A DNA stretch of 21,347 nucleotides from a virus. Below the pieces are notes generated by a model. The model searched no databases and had not been told where the DNA came from. It saw only the letters and a program-made list of their open reading frames with translations. The first letter of the stretch is position 1; the number at the start of each line of letters is the position of its first letter. Of this stretch, positions 466 through 20,352 are shown one piece after another. The stretch is from the IMG/VR virus record IMGVR_UViG_3300028384_000090, positions 1 to 21,347 of that record; one strand, 5' to 3'. Both the position numbers and the translations under genes were made by a program.

Positions 466-3400
466 CTACTCCGGTGGGCCGTACACAAATGGTTGTTGGC
501 CGAAATTGATCGTTGCTGTCGAGCTATACAGTGACATACCAACAAACACGGTTTCAGATGTGCCAATGTTTAAGCCACCTGTACCGCTTGATCCGCTGTT
601 TGGATCGCCTGAGTTTTGATATACGCCATTCTTTGAGAAGTAGACGTACCCGTTGTCCATGTCCACAGCAATACCAATCACATCACCGATTGCAAAAGCA
701 TCACCATATGTTGCTGTACTTGCATTGTTACGTCTCTTGCCGTCCCACCCATAGCCGAAACTACCAGAGCTATAGCCGTAATACTGATTATCAATACTAG
801 CTAGCTCTGACTCAGGTGATGCACCCACAATCAGGTAAGTGCCAGAGTTCCATGTAACTTCTGCATAAAACTTACCAGAGCTAATGCCAATCGTAGAGAT
901 TGCAGATTCCCAATCGGCAGTTGATCTGTTGCCTTTTAAGTTGCCTTCAGACAGCGTGACTGATGATGAACTACTCAAAGGATTCAACGTAGCAAAGTTA
1001 TCAGTCGGGCTATCTGCCACAGTATCATTGTGGTCTAGGTTGACTGGTTGCCAATCATTGTCATTACCAGACTGATCTAGCCAGAAGGCCGCTTCTCGTG
1101 TGTCTGCAAAGGCGGCGTAGATATATGTGCCACCAGAGGCGTTTTGACTTGCACCACTACCTTTTGGTTGAAAGCCGTTTGATAAAAAATCCAAGGGTAT
1201 ATTATTTGGCCCATCTTCAGCGGCACTACTGTTTGCCATAAGATTATAACCTTGTGGATTGGTAGTAGTTCTGGTGCTATCAAAAATGTACCAATTATGC
1301 GTTGAGTCAGTACGCTTAATCATCAAAAACGCAGGTTTAAACCCAGTCGTTACAGTCGGCCCTGTCGCAGAACCGTTTCCAGTATAAGACCCAAACGCAC
1401 TTCTGCCCGTAGTGGCTGTCCAACAGTAGGCGATGTAGTCTTGTCCACTGTTATTAGTATCTGCACCATTGCCTAAAGTAACAACAGATGCAGAAGGACT
1501 CGTGCTGTTAAAATAATTGGTTTTAGTAACTTCAGAGTCAGTTGTATTTAAGTATAAGAATTTTGTGTTAGCTAAAGAGGTATGCCAGACAACCCAATTT
1601 CTCGCTTCGGTACGGCTTTTTATTACGATCCAATCGGGTGCGCTTGATAGCCCGTGTCCAACAGTTGCACCACTAGTGCTATTACCCGTATAACTAACAA
1701 CGCTAAACCCAGTGGTATCATCAGCCTTCACACGGCTGTCAATAGAACCATCAGTGTTGTAGTCAGTGATGTAGTCTGAGTAGCTACCTGCGAATGCGGC
1801 GTAGATGTAAGTTCCACCGTTGGCGTTGATACCTGCATCTGCTGACCTCAGCTTGAATGACGTATTATGAAACTCAAACATTGTGTTCAAATCTTCTGTA
1901 TTATTCTTATTTGCAAATAATCTTTTATTCAATGGATTGAATGAGTCTCTACTTGCGTCAAACATCCACCAATCACCAGTGCTGTCAGTACGCTTTACCA
2001 TCACAAAGCCCGGACGAAAACCAACAGTAATTTCATTAGACCCATCACCAGCACCATTCCCAGTGTATGAGCCAAACTTCTGCTTGCCCGTTACATTCCG
2101 CCATGCATACGCTATGTAATTATCGCCTGACTCATTTGCAGTCTTATTGTCTACGCTTCCATCGACTGCTTTGAAAGTAGTAGTCGTCACATCACCAATC
2201 CCACCATGTGATCCGCCGCCAGTTACATCGCCTTCAGCACCAGTCGTAAAATATATATTGTGCGTATCTGAACTTAGACCTCGATGCCAAATACTCCAGT
2301 TATTGTTGACTGAGTTTGAATCTCTGTCTTTCACTATCAGCCAATCCGGCTCGCCACTTAGCCCGTGTCCAATCGTGTGATTTGAGCCGCCCGATCCAGT
2401 GTACGAAATGATTGAGAAGTCGCCATTAGACTTCACAGTCGAGGTAATATCCCCGTCTGTGTTGCTTACAGCATCACCGTCACCTGCATCCCATGCCCAA
2501 CCAACGTAAGTAAACCCAGTGTAGTTCGATGAACCGTCTGTGCTTCCTAAGATAAAGCCGTCGTCAGTAAAAGACGTAACTTCTGAACCAGTAGACTCTG
2601 CGTTACTGTTATTGGTAAACAGACGTTTTGTTGGCCCTCTGACAGAATCTTGCAAGACATGGTTATCAGTTTGCCCTGTACGAATCTTGAGCCAGAGTAG
2701 ATCGGGACGGAATGGCAAGCCACTGATTCTATGGCCTACTGTTGAGTTGCCAGTGTATGTGACCGACGAATGACCAGTGACAGCGTTGTTAGCTCCTGCG
2801 TCCCATTGCCATGCAACGTAGGTTTCACCTGAGTTATTATTAGCCGCATTATTACCGACAGTAAATCCGTCCGAATCAAAAGATTGTAATGTCGTTGAGC
2901 TAGTGCCTTCTGCGCCTGTGGATGCACTTCTTAGGTAATTTGTCGCACCTCTTACCGTATCAAAAATTACTGAATCTCGTGCAGTATTACGATCTTTTAT
3001 CCACACCAAATCGGGTGAGAATCCGGTTCCGGTGACAGACTGTGTTCCGCCGTTTCCACGATGGAGTGTGGTGTTGAACGCTTCCACCTCTGTATCATCT
3101 TCAAAGGTCAGCAGGAAACCATTCGTGCCGTATGTGCCTGTGTAGTCCTTGGCAACCCATACGCCATTCTTAGTTTCACCAAAGTCGTCTGCGTCTTTTG
3201 CTTGGCCGTCAATGAAGTGGACATCGGCTAGGTAGCCGTCGAAATAAGCAGAGCTTTCGTCACGCCCTAATTGGTGAGCATATGTTCCGCCAAAAGTTGT
3301 CAATTGATTCTGAGTAGTTGATGACCTCTGGTCTGTTGAGAAAGATGTAATCTCCTCGCCATTAATGTACATCGCAAGCCGATCAGCGGCAGTCGCTTGA

Positions 3401-3744: not shown

Positions 3745-5144
3745 TATGAAAACGCCAGTTGTGGTGTGCCTAAAAGAATCCGACCCGATGCCGCCACAAT
3801 GTATGGCACAACATCAGTCGCACTTGCGTCAGTCGACAAGGTTAGTCCTGCACCACCCGCTGTTTCGTAGTCAGTACCTAGGCTCACTGTGCGTCCGCCA
3901 GTAGAGTCCTGAATGAACACAATGAAGCCAGACTGTCCGACTGCCTCAGTAGTGGGGTTTGCCAGTGTCACCGCCCCTGTGAGCGTGAGTACAAAGTTCT
4001 GGTTGGTGTCAAAGTTGAGTGTGACCGATCCAGTGTTTGTGGTGTCTGTATCAGTCGATCCACGCTGTGCCGCAGTAAATGTGTTGTTAGTGTCCTTGGC
4101 TACAATGTCAGCGTCGAACGCTTGTACGTCTGTCCCAATGACTAGACCTAAATTTGTTCTAGCCGTACCTGCGTTATTTAGGTCTGACAGGTTGTTAGTT
4201 ACTTGTAAAAAGTCTCCTGCTGTTACTGCAGTGACTTGCCACGCACTACCGTTGTACACTTTAAAGTCGTTGTTTGTACTGTCAAAGTAAATAGCTCCGG
4301 TAATCAAAGCGTCGCCATCGTTGTCTACAGCAGGATCAGAAGATTTAGCTCCTAAGTAACGATCATCAAAGCTATCAAAACTAGCCGCCGCATTAGTCTC
4401 ACTGGTAGCGGCATTAGTGGCTGATGTAGCCGCCGCTGTTGCACTGTTCGCTGATGCTGTTGCGCTAGTGCTCGCTGATGTTGCTGATGTAGCCGCATTC
4501 GTTTCTGATGTGGAGGCATTACTCGCTGATGTAGCGGCATTTGTTTCTGATGTAGAGGCGTTAGACTCACTGGTAGCCGCATTAGCCGCTGATGTAGCCG
4601 CTGAGGTAGCAGAGCCCAGGATAGCGTCTACATAGCCCTTACGTGTCAGTGTGTCGTCAGTGGCCGGTGTTGCTGTAGAAGTAATTTTGTTAGCACCTAA
4701 AACAATATCTCCGGTCATAGTACCGCCAGAGAGTCCTAGTTTAGTTGCTAGAGAATTTGTAATGGTTGTTGAGAAGTTTGCATCGTCACCAATGGCCGCC
4801 GCAAGTTCATTCAACGTATCAAGAGCACCGGGAGCAGCATCAACAAGATTGGACACTTGTGTGTCTACATAGCCCTTAGAGGCCGCATCAGTGTCGTTAG
4901 AAGGGGTAGCTACTGTCAGTGTACCAGAGACGCTCCAGTTGCCTGAGACAGTGCCTGAAGAAGCTGTGATAGCTCCTGTAGTAACAGAGGAAGGATTAAT
5001 ACCTAGTTCTACAATAGTCCCACTGTTGTTGGTAAACAGTCGTTTGTCTGCTGTGTTGACAGCAAGTTCACCAGTAGTGATGTCAGAAGTAGTGGGAACA
5101 GCGGATGCTGTAGTAGACTTTTTAATGAGGATTTGAGTAGGCAT
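3744..5144 (-). CDS. Tail fibre-like protein with Ala/Ser/Thr helical repeat stalk
   Basis: A 466-residue protein whose N-terminus (ILIKKSTTASAVPT, then TGELAVNTADKRLFT) is the start commonly seen in phage tail fibre and receptor-binding proteins. The middle, about residues 176-255, is a low-complexity stalk of repeated ATSESNASTSETNA-like units, likely a trimeric coiled coil. The C-terminal part (SVTLNFDTNQNFVLTLTGAVTLANP through GFIVFIQDSTGGR) is beta-rich and resembles marine phage fibre tips. The ATG at 5144 has AGGA seven bases upstream. It is the first gene after the hairpin that follows the capsid gene, and its stop overlaps the start of the LamG/SPRY fibre. Whether it is the tail-proximal shaft is inferred. 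Confidence 0.82.
   Translation of the reverse strand: MPTQILIKKSTTASAVPTTSDITTGELAVNTADKRLFTNNSGTIVELGINPSSVTTGAITASSGTVSGNWSVSGTLTVATPSNDTDAASKGYVDTQVSNLVDAAPGALDTLNELAAAIGDDANFSTTITNSLATKLGLSGGTMTGDIVLGANKITSTATPATDDTLTRKGYVDAILGSATSAATSAANAATSESNASTSETNAATSASNASTSETNAATSATSASTSATASANSATAAATSATNAATSETNAAASFDSFDDRYLGAKSSDPAVDNDGDALITGAIYFDSTNNDFKVYNGSAWQVTAVTAGDFLQVTNNLSDLNNAGTARTNLGLVIGTDVQAFDADIVAKDTNNTFTAAQRGSTDTDTTNTGSVTLNFDTNQNFVLTLTGAVTLANPTTEAVGQSGFIVFIQDSTGGRTVSLGTDYETAGGAGLTLSTDASATDVVPYIVAASGRILLGTPQLAFS
4382..4618 (-). repeat. Short tandem repeats encoding the Ala/Ser/Thr fibre stalk
   Basis: The DNA is built from degenerate copies of a unit encoding NASTSETNAATSA. The clearest pair (TTTCTGATGTGGAGGC and TTTCTGATGTAGAGGC on the plus strand, near 4501 and 4543) is 42 bp apart, equal to 14 codons. 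Such arrays can change length by slippage or recombination, which would alter fibre length. Confidence 0.75.
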
Positions 5145-11906: not shown

Positions 11907-11935
11907 ATTATAGCATAGAAATTACTAAATGTCAA
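11907..11935 (-). promoter_or_regulatory. Consensus sigma-70 promoter for the packaging/head arm
   Basis: Minus strand TTGACA (11935-11930), a 17-base spacer and TATAAT (11912-11907): a perfect consensus promoter. The predicted start near 11900 gives the small terminase mRNA a leader of about 120 bases. ATCTTAAG follows six bases after the -10. AGGGG lies directly upstream of the -35, as in the second promoter. Confidence 0.88.
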
Positions 11936-12037: not shown

Positions 12038-12120
12038 ATTATAATTATCAAACAAATGACTACTTGCGAATGCTAATGCGAATGATTTGCATTTACATTA
12101 ATATTTAGAGGGGTTTTGTG

Positions 12121-12180
12121 TTCTCAAATAGCCCTTTTATTGTGCCTGAGTTCTCAAATAGCCCTTTTATTGTGCCTGAG
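12121..12180. repeat. Perfect 30-bp tandem duplication
   Basis: The unit starting TTCTCAAATAGCCC and ending TGTGCCTGAG occurs twice without a mismatch or gap (12121-12150 and 12151-12180). Its last 11 bases plus the next T (TGTGCCTGAGT) recur at 12423. Perfect identity suggests a recent duplication or selection, for example as a protein-binding site. Confidence 0.95.
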
Positions 12181-12198
12181 TGGGTACACATATATATT
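12170..12198 (+). promoter_or_regulatory. Candidate sigma-70 promoter for the right arm, weak
   Basis: TTGTGC (12170-12175), a 17-base spacer and TATATT (12193-12198) on the plus strand. The -10 has five of six consensus bases but the -35 only three, so this is far weaker than the left-arm promoters. It is the best sigma-70 candidate I can see facing the early genes. Confidence 0.3.
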
Positions 12199-12535: not shown

Positions 12536-12601
12536 GACAGTAACTAGACTAAGGTCTAATGGTAAATCGTAAGTGGTTGATTGGCTTGGGGTTTCTAAAG
12601 T

Positions 12602-12616
12602 TGGCACAGTGTCTGC
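12602..12616 (+). promoter_or_regulatory. Sigma-54-like -24/-12 element, speculative
   Basis: TGGCAC and TGCA occur with the GG and GC dinucleotides separated by ten bases, as in sigma-54 promoters; two positions of the extended consensus differ. A start near 12628 would fall about 25 bases before the first early gene. Chance occurrence is plausible. Confidence 0.25.
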
Positions 12617-12652
12617 ATATATCACTACATACACAACAGAGGAGTATTACAT

Positions 12653-12850
12653 ATGAAAACATTCAACAAAGGTGATCGTGTACGGTGGCTCGTCGAGTCG
12701 TTCCCTGATGGCTTTAAGCTCTACCATGAGGGCGAGATTGAGGCTTTCTGGGGGACCGAAGGCAGTCAGCGTCTGTGGTGGGTGCAGTCTGACCGGAGGA
12801 ACAGCCCTCAGAGTATGTCTGAGGATCAGCTCGAGTTGATCGCCCACTGA
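12653..12850 (+). CDS. Early protein of unknown function (65 aa)
   Basis: First gene of the right arm. The product is rich in aromatic and charged residues (KGDRVRWLVESFPDGFKLYHEGEIEAFWG, here broken by a probable turn at PDG; then LWWVQSDRR). The GDRVRW start followed by short beta segments suggests a small barrel of SH3/KOW type, but this is only a shape impression. The ATG has AGGAG eight bases upstream. Its stop codon TGA (12848-12850) is the UGA of the CUGAUGA core of the first hammerhead ribozyme, so translation and ribozyme folding overlap physically. Confidence 0.65.
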   Translation: MKTFNKGDRVRWLVESFPDGFKLYHEGEIEAFWGTEGSQRLWWVQSDRRNSPQSMSEDQLELIAH

Positions 12851-12901
12851 TGAGCCTAGGTTGCGCTAGGCGAAACACAGGCATACAGTCTGTGTCTGGG
12901 T
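12842..12901 (+). ncRNA. Hammerhead ribozyme 1 (type I)
   Basis: All conserved hammerhead elements are present in order. Stem I 5' arm GCCCA (12842-12846); core CTGATGA (12847-12853); stem II GCCTAG/CTAGGC (12854-12859 with 12866-12871) and a six-base loop; core GAAA (12872-12875); stem III ACACAG/CTGTGT (12875-12880 with 12890-12895), including the required A15.1-U16.1 pair; GUC cleavage triplet ending at C12896; stem I 3' arm TGGGT (12897-12901). Open ends in stem I make it type I. An extra TTG/CAA pairing beyond a small internal loop may extend stem I. Cleavage after 12896 leaves a 29-base leader before the next gene's ATG. Confidence 0.9.
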
Positions 12902-12925
12902 TGCAAACACACAGGAGTAACACAT

Positions 12926-13201
12926 ATGAACACACGTAAGCAGACAGCGATCATCAATGCACTCACTAAGGCAGGTTGGGGCGATGTCGTCATGACCGAC
13001 TGGGAATACGAGGGCGACATCAAGATCAATTGTGAGAAGTGGGTTGAGGCTAAAGGCATGAGCGCAGGCGACTACTACTGTGAATCGAGCAATAGCCTGT
13101 ACGACGATCAAGGCACTAGTCAGGAGATTGCCAAGATCCTCAAGAAATACAATGCATACCCTGAGTGGTATGATGCGGCTGTCATTGCGGTAGTCGCTTG
13201 A
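12926..13201 (+). CDS. Early protein of unknown function (91 aa)
   Basis: The product starts MNTRKQTAIINALTKAGWG and ends AAVIAVVA; I do not recognise a family. It looks like a small mixed alpha/beta domain with a helical N-terminus. The ATG has AGGAG eight bases upstream in an ACACACAGGAG context. It is the first gene after hammerhead ribozyme 1, and its processed mRNA would begin at 12897. Together with the 47-residue gene it lies on the 575-base RNA bounded by the two predicted cleavage sites. Confidence 0.65.
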   Translation: MNTRKQTAIINALTKAGWGDVVMTDWEYEGDIKINCEKWVEAKGMSAGDYYCESSNSLYDDQGTSQEIAKILKKYNAYPEWYDAAVIAVVA

Positions 13202-13211
13202 CAATGACAAC

Positions 13212-13231
13212 GGGCGGCTGTATTGTCGCCC
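13212..13231 (+). other. RNA stem-loop between early genes
   Basis: GGGCGGC and GTCGCCC pair over 7 bp (one G-U) around a six-base loop TGTATT, ten bases after the 91-residue gene and 22 bases before the next ATG. There is no U-run after it, so it is more likely an mRNA stabiliser or processing site than an intrinsic terminator. It lies midway in the segment between the two ribozymes. Confidence 0.5.
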
Positions 13232-13253
13232 TCAGTTGAACAGGAGAACGAAC

Positions 13254-13397
13254 ATGAGTGAACGACAGCAGGAATTGCAACAGATGATGGAGTCATTGGA
13301 CGCCATGTATCCACAGATGGATGAGCGACAGCAGTTGCAAGCACGTCGGGCGATGGCCTCATTGTTGAGGTTGCAAGCTGACTTGGCGGAGGACTGA
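13254..13397 (+). CDS. Small helical early protein (47 aa)
   Basis: A short reading frame starting MSERQQELQQMMESLDAMYP and ending LLRLQADLAED. It is rich in Gln, Met, Leu and Glu and should form one or two amphipathic helices. The ATG has AGGAG seven bases upstream, strong evidence for translation despite its size. The repeated ERQQ-LQ pattern (residues 3-9 and 24-29) suggests a helical hairpin. The stop TGA (13395-13397) is immediately followed by stem I of hammerhead ribozyme 2. Function unknown. Confidence 0.65.
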   Translation: MSERQQELQQMMESLDAMYPQMDERQQLQARRAMASLLRLQADLAED

Positions 13398-13476
13398 GCC
13401 CACTGATGAGCCTAGGTTGCACTAGGCGAAACGACCACAAAGGACTGGAAGCCCTTCAGTCAGTGGTCGTCTGGGT
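13398..13476 (+). ncRNA. Hammerhead ribozyme 2 (type I)
   Basis: Same architecture as the first copy: stem I GCCCA (13398-13402) with TGGGT (13472-13476); core CTGATGA (13403-13409); stem II GCCTAG/CTAGGC (13410-13415 with 13422-13427); core GAAA (13428-13431); stem III ACGACCAC/GTGGTCGT (13431-13438 with 13463-13470), capped by a further hairpin GACTG/CAGTC (13443-13447 with 13457-13461); GUC ending at C13471. The 5' half matches copy 1 at 34 of 35 bases with the sole change in loop II, whereas stem III is unrelated in sequence but fully paired. Cleavage after 13471 leaves 27 bases before the next ATG. Confidence 0.92.
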
Positions 13477-13498
13477 AGCACACACAGGAGAAAGCACC

Positions 13499-13801
13499 AT
13501 GAGAAAGATTGAGAAAGAAATGAACTACGCTGTAGCACAGGGCCGGAACTGGTCATCAGCTAACACTATGGTCAGGGTTGAGCCTGAGACACGCTTACGC
13601 CACGTATACCTGCACGGGCACCACATCGCCACAGTTGAGGTGCAGTCGTCTGGTTGGGGTTGGTCTGGTCACGTCAAGCCGAACCTAGAGACGCTCGCTG
13701 ACTGGCCGACGAATACCACCAAGTCACGCCTGAGAGCCCTTGGGGTTGACGTATACACACGGAATCACACCACATATGTTGACGGAGTACCAGTAGCATG
13801 A
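13499..13801 (+). CDS. Early protein of unknown function (100 aa)
   Basis: The product begins MRKIEKEMNYAVAQGRNWSS and contains VYLHGHHIATVEV, a Trp/Gly run and TLADWPTNTTKSRLRALGV. Small phage proteins with a WSSGNT-type segment, an LHG-IA strand and a WPT-TT-SRL-ALGV helix are familiar to me, but without assigned function. The ATG at 13499 is chosen over an earlier in-frame one because AGGAG lies eight bases upstream and the earlier one falls inside ribozyme 2. It would be translated from the ribozyme-processed mRNA starting at 13472. Its end overlaps the next start (ATGA). Confidence 0.72.
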   Translation: MRKIEKEMNYAVAQGRNWSSANTMVRVEPETRLRHVYLHGHHIATVEVQSSGWGWSGHVKPNLETLADWPTNTTKSRLRALGVDVYTRNHTTYVDGVPVA

Positions 13802-19459: not shown

Positions 19460-20352
19460 TGGATAAATCAATTCAAACGCTAGTAGACGATATCTACACG
19501 CTGATGACCTCTAGGGATGTACCGGAGGGAGTCGATGTCGATGCAGAGATTGATCGCTTTGGTGAGGCCATGAAAGACCTCATGAAGAAAGAGTTCAAGC
19601 CTGCGGCAGTCAAGGATACTCGTCGCTTACGTTTGAGTGCGATTGGTAAAGATGATCGTCAACTCTGGTACTCGTACAATCAGTACGAACGGGAAGAACT
19701 CAAGCCACACACTTACATCAAGTTCATGTACGGACATATGATTGAAGAACTTATTCTGTTCTTGACTCGTCTGTCTGGTCACAAGGTCGAAGATGAGCAG
19801 AAGCGGTGCGAGGTCGAAGGTGTCAAGGGCTCTATGGATGCCCGTATTGATGGTCGACTGGTTGACGTTAAGTCTACCTCGACATTCGGCTTCAAGAAGT
19901 TCAAGGACGCTACTCTAGCCTACGATGATCCTTTCGGTTACGTTGCACAGTTGAAAGCCTATGCACACTCCGAAGGTGACACCAAGTACGGTTGGATTGC
20001 GATTGACAAGCAGAACGGCCACCTGTGCTACCTTGAGTATGATGAGGAAGACACACAGGCTCCTGTGCACTCGTCAATCAACTACGACATAGCTGAGCGT
20101 GTACGTCATGTAAAAAAGCTAGTCGAGCTACCGGAGCCGCCAGACTTCTGCAACTCGCCAGTAGCGGATGGCAAGTCTGGAAACGAAAAGTTAGCCACGG
20201 GATGCTCATACTGCGACTTCAAACACCACTGCTACCCCAACTTAAGAGGATTTGCTTATTCTACTGGTATAAGGTTTTTAACCAAGGTAGAGAATGAACC
20301 GAATGTTCCGGAAATTACCTTGGAGAAACCGAATGGCAAAGAAGAAGGGTAA
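19459..20352 (+). CDS. RecB/Cas4-like PD-(D/E)XK exonuclease with C-terminal Cys cluster
   Basis: A 297-residue nuclease. The active-site pattern is D127 in GSMDARIDG, then D136-V-K138, followed by Q164-xxx-Y168 (QLKAY), the RecB-family motif. GHMIEE (92-97) matches the preceding conserved helix. At the C-terminus C231, C249, C252 and C258 (FCNSP, GCSYCDFKHHC) resemble the iron-sulfur or zinc staple of Cas4/AddB-type nucleases, but here all four Cys are C-terminal. ATG 19459 is used because it overlaps the preceding stop. Likely role: 5' exonuclease for DNA degradation or recombination, equivalent to T7 gp6. It is not a CRISPR component here. Confidence 0.8.
   Translation: MDKSIQTLVDDIYTLMTSRDVPEGVDVDAEIDRFGEAMKDLMKKEFKPAAVKDTRRLRLSAIGKDDRQLWYSYNQYEREELKPHTYIKFMYGHMIEELILFLTRLSGHKVEDEQKRCEVEGVKGSMDARIDGRLVDVKSTSTFGFKKFKDATLAYDDPFGYVAQLKAYAHSEGDTKYGWIAIDKQNGHLCYLEYDEEDTQAPVHSSINYDIAERVRHVKKLVELPEPPDFCNSPVADGKSGNEKLATGCSYCDFKHHCYPNLRGFAYSTGIRFLTKVENEPNVPEITLEKPNGKEEG

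What the first reader, a model, noticed from the sequence alone, without database searches (positions are those of the whole stretch)
12842..12901. Complete type I hammerhead ribozyme overlapping an early gene's stop codon
Every invariant position is present: CUGAUGA, GAAA, the A15.1-U16.1 pair, a G-C pair closing stem II and a GUC cleavage triplet, joined by three fully paired stems. The UGA inside CUGAUGA is the stop codon of the 65-residue gene. A ribosome ending translation there would cover the core and block folding, so cleavage may be switched by translation of the upstream gene. Hammerheads in phage DNA are known; one built around a stop codon in an early operon beside an origin is unusual.
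Basis: partly seen in the sequence, partly recalled or inferred. Interest (0 to 1): 0.92.

Follow-up and report, generated by a model that had tools for sequence, protein, structure and literature searches.

The report
Phage self-cutting RNAs at gene junctions
Two self-cutting RNA elements (hammerhead ribozymes) sit between small early genes of an uncultured bacterial virus and probably chop its long message into separate gene messages; they belong to a known class, but in this virus and about a hundred other viral sequences they are usually lined up exactly with, or share, the stop codon of the gene before them.

Summary
The hammerhead at 12842-12901 is real. All core bases, three paired stems, the A15.1-U16.1 pair and a GUC site are present; cleavage is predicted between 12896 and 12897. 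Rfam scores both below cut-off, but it also misses the PaP3 phage hammerhead published as active. A covariance model built here from 42 viral sequences finds both; copy 2, which was not in the training set, scores 56.6 bits (E 8e-14). A strict motif pattern hits 105 viral contigs, of which 94 fold as hammerheads; in cellular genomes it hits 67 contigs, of which 2 fold. Stems covary at 12 of 14 pairs. These ribozymes sit between a stop codon and the next ribosome-binding site. The stop abuts stem I or is the core UGA itself, the latter in about 15 unrelated upstream gene families, so it is a family trait. Best explanation: self-processing of a polycistronic early mRNA, leaving stop codon and a folded 3' end on the upstream message and a 27-29 nt leader on the downstream one. 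Perreault 2011 proposed this for clustered prophage hammerheads. Activity was not tested here.

The parts
12842..12901 (+). Hammerhead copy 1, type I: stem I 12842-12846/12897-12901, core CUGAUGA 12847-12853, stem II 12854-12859/12866-12871, GAAA 12872-12875, stem III 12876-12882/12888-12894, U16.1 12895, C17 12896, predicted cut 12896/12897
   Evidence: Sequence; fold; model R1 56.3 bits, but this copy is one of the 42 training rows
12848..12850 (+). UGA in the hammerhead core, stop codon of the 65-residue gene
   Evidence: ORF list; stop in the core conserved in L067, L106, L107
12653..12850 (+). 65-residue early gene whose last two codons and stop overlap stem I and the core of copy 1
   Evidence: 12-17 synonymous against 6-9 non-synonymous codon differences; no PHROG match
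12902..12906 (+). Tail UGCAA, complementary to loop II UUGCG (12861-12865): predicted pseudoknot of 4 Watson-Crick pairs and one G-U
   Evidence: Family-level permutation test; same pairing seen for L019, which has the same loop and tail
12913..12917 (+). AGGAG ribosome-binding site of the 91-residue gene (ATG 12926), 29-nt leader after the cut
   Evidence: Sequence
12926..13201 (+). 91-residue early gene between the two ribozymes
   Evidence: 23 synonymous against 4 non-synonymous codon differences to L109
13254..13397 (+). 47-residue early gene; its UGA 13395-13397 abuts stem I of copy 2 with no spacer
   Evidence: homolog with the same junction in L109
13398..13476 (+). Hammerhead copy 2, type I: stem I 13398-13402/13472-13476, core 13403-13409, stem II 13410-13415/13422-13427, GAAA 13428-13431, stem III 13432-13438/13463-13469, U16.1 13470, C17 13471, predicted cut 13471/13472
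   Evidence: fold -35.3 kcal/mol, z -3.7; model R1 56.6 bits, E 7.6e-14, not in training set
13439..13462 (+). Conserved stem III cap AAAG-GACU-GGAAGCCCUUC-AGUC-A
   Evidence: Same cap in six other distinct hammerheads (L021, L043, L058, L083, L086, L104) with covarying 4-bp helix and different stem II/loop II, near match in L081/L109
13486..13490 (+). AGGAG ribosome-binding site of the next gene (ATG 13499), 27-nt leader after the cut
   Evidence: Sequence
13499..13801 (+). 100-residue gene downstream of copy 2 (PHROG 554, unknown function)
   Evidence: in L067 the homolog has no hammerhead directly upstream

Best explanation
Both elements are self-cleaving type I hammerhead ribozymes placed at gene junctions of an early polycistronic phage transcript. 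Each folds as RNA polymerase passes and cuts the message 3' of C17. Because the order is type I, almost the whole ribozyme stays on the upstream mRNA as a folded 3' end with a 2',3'-cyclic phosphate, and the stop codon (abutting stem I, or being the core UGA) stays on that side too, so the upstream message is not left without a stop. The downstream mRNA starts with a 5'-OH, half of stem I and a short leader (27-29 nt) with its ribosome-binding site. Two cuts would release a 575-nt RNA (12897-13471) carrying the 91- and 47-residue genes. Shown here: sequence, structure, covariation, family, placement and stop-codon geometry. Inferred: cleavage, co-transcriptional timing, and effects on mRNA stability and expression.
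For: Intact core and stems in both copies. Independent recovery of copy 2 by a model not trained on it. Compensatory changes in 12 of 14 pairs, 97.8% of cells paired. 94 of 105 viral against 2 of 67 cellular pattern matches fold. Consistent placement between a stop codon and the next ribosome-binding site, leader mostly 20-40 nt, 78 of 79 with a purine-rich site. Up to 4 copies per viral contig, with copies near one another. Published precedent: tandem bacterial hammerheads cut in vitro, one set in E. coli, and processing of phage transcripts into gene-length mRNA was proposed (PMC3088659). PaP3, listed there as active, has the same layout, UAA directly before stem I.
Against: No activity or RNA-end data for these sequences. 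Rfam scores are below threshold. Most relatives found by DNA polymerase show no hammerhead within the fetched stretch, so the element is dispensable; many of those contigs are fragments that may not reach the early region. Transcription of the region as one unit is assumed; a sigma-70-like promoter lies between the two copies.
Confidence: 0.78

Rival explanations
1. One reading: translation termination at the core UGA hides the core, so cleavage depends on whether the upstream gene is being translated, and this controls expression of the operon.
For: The core UGA is the stop codon here, in three homologs and in about 15 unrelated upstream families; frames reading past the core are rare.
Against: Most elements have the stop upstream of stem I, including copy 2 in the same operon. 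The pattern is also what compact packing plus avoidance of ribosomes in the ribozyme would give. No measurement links translation to cleavage.
Confidence: 0.13
2. The elements are mainly recombination linkers: conserved blocks at gene borders that let phages exchange small genes; RNA cutting is secondary.
For: The 65- and 47-residue genes keep a hammerhead at their 3' end while the next gene differs between contigs.
Against: Stems II and III vary freely in sequence while keeping pairing, and loop II covaries with the tail; a DNA linker would conserve sequence, not pairing. Linker use and RNA cutting could both be true.
Confidence: 0.04
3. Paired hammerheads excise an RNA that is ligated into a circle (5'-OH and cyclic phosphate ends suit RtcB ligase).
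For: Two copies flank a 575-nt segment in the window and several contigs hold 2-4 copies.
Against: Many contigs hold one copy only. Perreault 2011 looked for circular or spliced products of tandem bacterial hammerheads and found none.
Confidence: 0.02
4. They are decayed ribozymes or plain 3' stabilising hairpins that no longer cut.
For: No activity data; Rfam scores below threshold.
Against: Core positions are intact in both copies and invariant in nearly all of 42 diverse rows. Rfam also misses the active PaP3 ribozyme.
Confidence: 0.03

Closest known systems
Clustered gene-flanking hammerheads of prophages (Perreault et al. 2011, PMC3088659)
   Same: Hammerheads between phage genes, several per region, all three stems, pseudoknot option, proposed processing into gene-length mRNA
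   Different: Here a type I subtype with open 4-6 bp stem I (mostly CCCA/UGGG), stop codon abutting stem I or lying in the core, and in some copies a conserved stem III cap; found in virus contigs of podovirus-like gene content
Pseudomonas phage PaP3 hammerhead
   Same: Type I, UAA directly before stem I, in a cluster of small phage genes, missed by Rfam, found by model R1
   Different: Different stem sequences, longer stem III; listed by Perreault 2011 as carrying a core variation; a cultured phage
Type I hammerheads of Acinetobacter phages JeffCo and vB_AbaP_Alexa (found here)
   Same: CUGAUGA or CUGACGA core, GAAA, CCCAU/AUGGG stem I, unannotated intergenic position
   Different: Stem III of about 2 bp; not directly at a stop codon in the deposited annotation
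RAGATH-1 hammerhead (Rfam RF03152)
   Same: Best Rfam match over the full element for copy 1, similar order of core and stems
   Different: 25.1 and 21.0 bits against a cut-off of 56.3; the extra 5' hairpin of that model is not clearly present
RNase III sites between early genes of T7-like phages (general knowledge, not tested here)
   Same: Cut an early polycistronic phage mRNA at intergenic hairpins into gene-sized messages
   Different: A host protein cuts there; here the RNA would cut itself and leave 5'-OH and cyclic phosphate ends

Membership tests
Hammerhead ribozyme, type I | Conserved core CUGANGA and GAAA with H17 | tested here: met
   Both copies CUGAUGA, GAAA, C17
Hammerhead ribozyme, type I | Three stems around the core, open end at stem I, G10.1-C11.1 and A15.1-U16.1 pairs | tested here: met
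   Sequence and minimum-energy fold of both copies; covariation across family
Hammerhead ribozyme, type I | Tertiary contact between stem I side and loop II | tested here: inconclusive
   Complementary tail and loop II at family level; 5 pairs in copy 1, only 3 Watson-Crick pairs (or 4 with two G-U) in copy 2
Hammerhead ribozyme, type I | Self-cleavage 3' of position 17 | not testable with these tools
   Needs RNA
Rfam RF00163 / RF00008 / RF03152 models | Score at or above curated cut-off | tested here: not met
   No RF00163 match; RF00008 23.1 and RF03152 25.1 bits for copy 1, 17.2 and 21.0 for copy 2. Published active PaP3 hammerhead also not met, so these are not filed under the Rfam families although they meet the class definition
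Gene-flanking phage processing hammerheads (Perreault 2011 kind) | Hammerheads flanking single genes or short gene blocks in phage DNA | tested here: met
   Two copies flank 12926-13397; 1-4 copies in other contigs
Gene-flanking phage processing hammerheads (Perreault 2011 kind) | Native transcript processed into gene-length RNAs | not testable with these tools
   Needs RNA from infected cells or a cloned segment

The most novel reading that the evidence does not exclude
Phages widely use hammerheads whose core contains, or directly abuts, the upstream stop codon as a termination-coupled processing switch: the terminating ribosome controls when the ribozyme folds and cuts. In some copies the conserved stem III cap (ANAG-N4-GGAAGCNCUUC-N4-A) adds a binding site for a protein or ligand that tunes cutting.
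Probability: 0.14. Interest if true: 0.82.

Novelty: new member of a known kind. Interest (0 to 1): 0.5.

Why it matters
A 2017 review calls the role of hammerheads in prokaryotes an open question and notes their persistent link to phages (PMC6155905). About a hundred viral examples with one layout (stop codon, ribozyme, short leader, ribosome-binding site, next gene) make the mRNA-processing idea directly testable. The stop-codon alignment is a quantified rule that I did not find in the papers I could search. Standard annotation misses these elements because they score below Rfam cut-offs.

Tried and rejected
Rfam as a membership test: fails here, but also for the published active PaP3 element, so discarded as a criterion. 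Chance: rejected by shuffles and by the viral against cellular contrast. Uniqueness of the stop-codon overlap: rejected. Closest cultured relatives by DNA polymerase: no hits in the fetched parts of HTVC103P, HTVC104P, HTVC115P and CRP-403. DNA similarity of 12600-13520 to cultured phages: none. Literature searches on phage hammerheads, stop codons and metagenomes gave nothing beyond Perreault 2011 and reviews; subscription papers and preprints could not be searched. My own finder with 3-bp minima missed PaP3 and JeffCo, so element counts are lower bounds.

Full report
OBSERVATION. The predicted cut is between C12896 and U12897. The minimum-energy fold is exactly the hammerhead secondary structure (-25.4 kcal/mol, z -2.9). 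In 300 dinucleotide shuffles of the window no type I hammerhead with stems of at least 4 bp appeared. The UGA at 12848-12850 is the stop codon of the 65-residue ORF 12653-12850. That ORF is a real gene: three homologs are 88-91% identical, with 12-17 synonymous against 6-9 non-synonymous codon differences.

A SECOND COPY. It has the same stem I (GCCCA/UGGGU), the same stem II (GCCUAG/CUAGGC) and a longer, capped stem III. It lies directly after the stop of a 47-residue gene (UGA 13395-13397) and 27 nt upstream of the next start codon (ATG 13499). The cut of copy 1 lies 29 nt upstream of its next start codon (ATG 12926). Both leaders carry AGGAG.

RFAM AND ITS LIMITS. Rfam scores are well below the curated thresholds, and RF00163 gives nothing. 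However, the hammerhead of phage PaP3, listed by Perreault et al. 2011 among active ribozymes with core variations (PMC3088659, Figure S6 legend), also fails Rfam (17.1 and 14.1 bits). A model built here from 42 viral sequences (R1) finds PaP3 (E 1e-9) and two Acinetobacter phages, and it finds copy 2, which was not in its training set, at 56.6 bits. Copy 1 was in the training set, so its 56.3 bits are partly by construction.

THE FAMILY. The pattern CTGATGAG-N8-38-CGAAAC-N10-40-GTCTGGG occurs in 105 viral contigs; in 94 of them it folds as a type I hammerhead. In 257 billion bases of bacterial and archaeal genomes it occurs in 67 contigs, of which 2 fold. This excludes chance and shows that this subtype is essentially viral in these collections. 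On 42 diverse sequences, 97.8% of cells are paired (shuffled 77.3%), 12 of 14 pairs have changes on both sides, and the covariation score is 0.543 against 0.139, with slid controls of 0.03-0.09. The alignment was selected for pairing, which raises the paired percentage but not the variety of pairs. Loop II is complementary to the tail 3' of stem I more than in any of 1000 re-pairings (mean helix 3.81 against 3.14 +/- 0.09; at least 4 pairs in 43 of 67 against 23 expected). Relatedness inflates such tests somewhat, but pairs such as UUGGC/GCCAA, UGGUU/AACCA, UUGAC/GUCAA and GUUGC/GCAAC show real co-variation. Perreault 2011 describes such pseudoknots for all three hammerhead types.

STOP-CODON GEOMETRY. 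Taking the longest upstream frame for 96 distinct elements, 26 end at the core UGA and 41 end at a stop codon that abuts stem I (spacer 0 or -1). With a stricter gene definition the stop positions are -8 (20), -7 (22) and +1 (25) among 90 elements, counted from the C of CUGAUGA. The 65 upstream protein families include about 15 with the core stop. The geometry is therefore a recurring rule and not peculiar to this window. Frames that read past the core are rare, and several of those cases are contig-edge or alternative-frame artefacts. A simple explanation is compact packing with ribosomes kept out of the ribozyme; in addition the type I order keeps the stop codon on the upstream cleavage product.

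MOSAIC CONTEXT. The 65-residue gene is followed by a hammerhead in the window, L067, L106 and L107, and the next gene differs between the window, L067 and L106. The 47-residue gene is followed by a hammerhead in the window and in L109, with different next genes. The 91-residue gene has no ribozyme upstream in L108 and L109, and the PHROG 554 gene has none directly upstream in L067. The element thus appears to travel as the 3' end of its upstream gene in a region of exchangeable small genes. A gene that carries its own self-cutting 3' end could sit anywhere in an operon and still yield its own message; that last step is inference.

STEM III CAP. Copy 2 carries AAAG-GACU-GGAAGCCCUUC-AGUC-A in stem III. 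Six other distinct hammerheads share ANAG-N4-GGAAGCNCUUC-N4-A with a covarying 4-bp helix, although their stem II and loop II differ. Its role is unknown; it may be a binding site or simply inherited.

THE VIRUS. The best tblastn hits of the DNA polymerase are Pelagibacter phages HTVC103P, HTVC104P and HTVC115P (46-49% identity). Structural genes match portal, terminase, scaffold and head protein families, in an order also seen in PaP3. The host is unknown. The record is a 21,347-base virus contig.

MECHANISM. Most likely the early transcript cuts itself at both sites as it is made. This gives an upstream message that ends in a folded ribozyme with its stop codon intact, a 575-nt middle RNA with the 91- and 47-residue genes, and a downstream message with a 27-nt leader. 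Shown: structure, family, placement. Inferred: cleavage, timing, effect on stability. Perreault 2011 showed cleavage of tandem bacterial hammerheads in vitro and of one set in E. coli, and proposed this role. A 2017 review still calls the role in prokaryotes open (PMC6155905).

VERDICT. A real ribozyme pair and a new member of a known kind, with an informative stop-codon rule across the family that I did not find reported in the open papers searched. Interest is moderate: the element is not categorically new, but the family makes an open question testable.

Noticed in passing
   Followed up: yes
window 12602-12617 (+), L109 about 3953-3968: TGGCACAGTGTCTGCA upstream of the first early gene resembles a sigma-54 (-24/-12) promoter; the same TTGGCACAGTGTCTGC block stands at the same place in L109. 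Matches with up to one mismatch are not above chance over the whole window.
   Followed up: partly
window 13198-13226 (+): Sigma-70-like TTGACA-17-TATTGT between the 91- and 47-residue genes; a similar block (TTGACA..TAGTGT) stands in L108 and L109. If active, it would feed the RNA cut by copy 2.
   Followed up: no
window 11907-11935 (-): Perfect sigma-70 consensus TTGACA-17-TATAAT with TG, facing the terminase and structural genes.
   Followed up: no
window 12120-12181: Exact 30-bp tandem duplication in the non-coding region between the divergent gene sets.
   Followed up: no
window 12248 and 12304: Two TTATCCACA (DnaA-box-like) sites in the non-coding region; over the whole window such matches are not above chance.
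   Followed up: partly
L197 about 20005-20060 and L198 about 3002-3058: Unannotated type I hammerheads with a very short stem III in cultured Acinetobacter phages JeffCo and vB_AbaP_Alexa.
   Followed up: partly
L351 5727 and L335: The only two of 67 pattern matches in cellular genomes that fold as hammerheads (Thalassobium sp. R2A62 and a Desulfotomaculum MAG), possibly prophage-borne.
   Followed up: no
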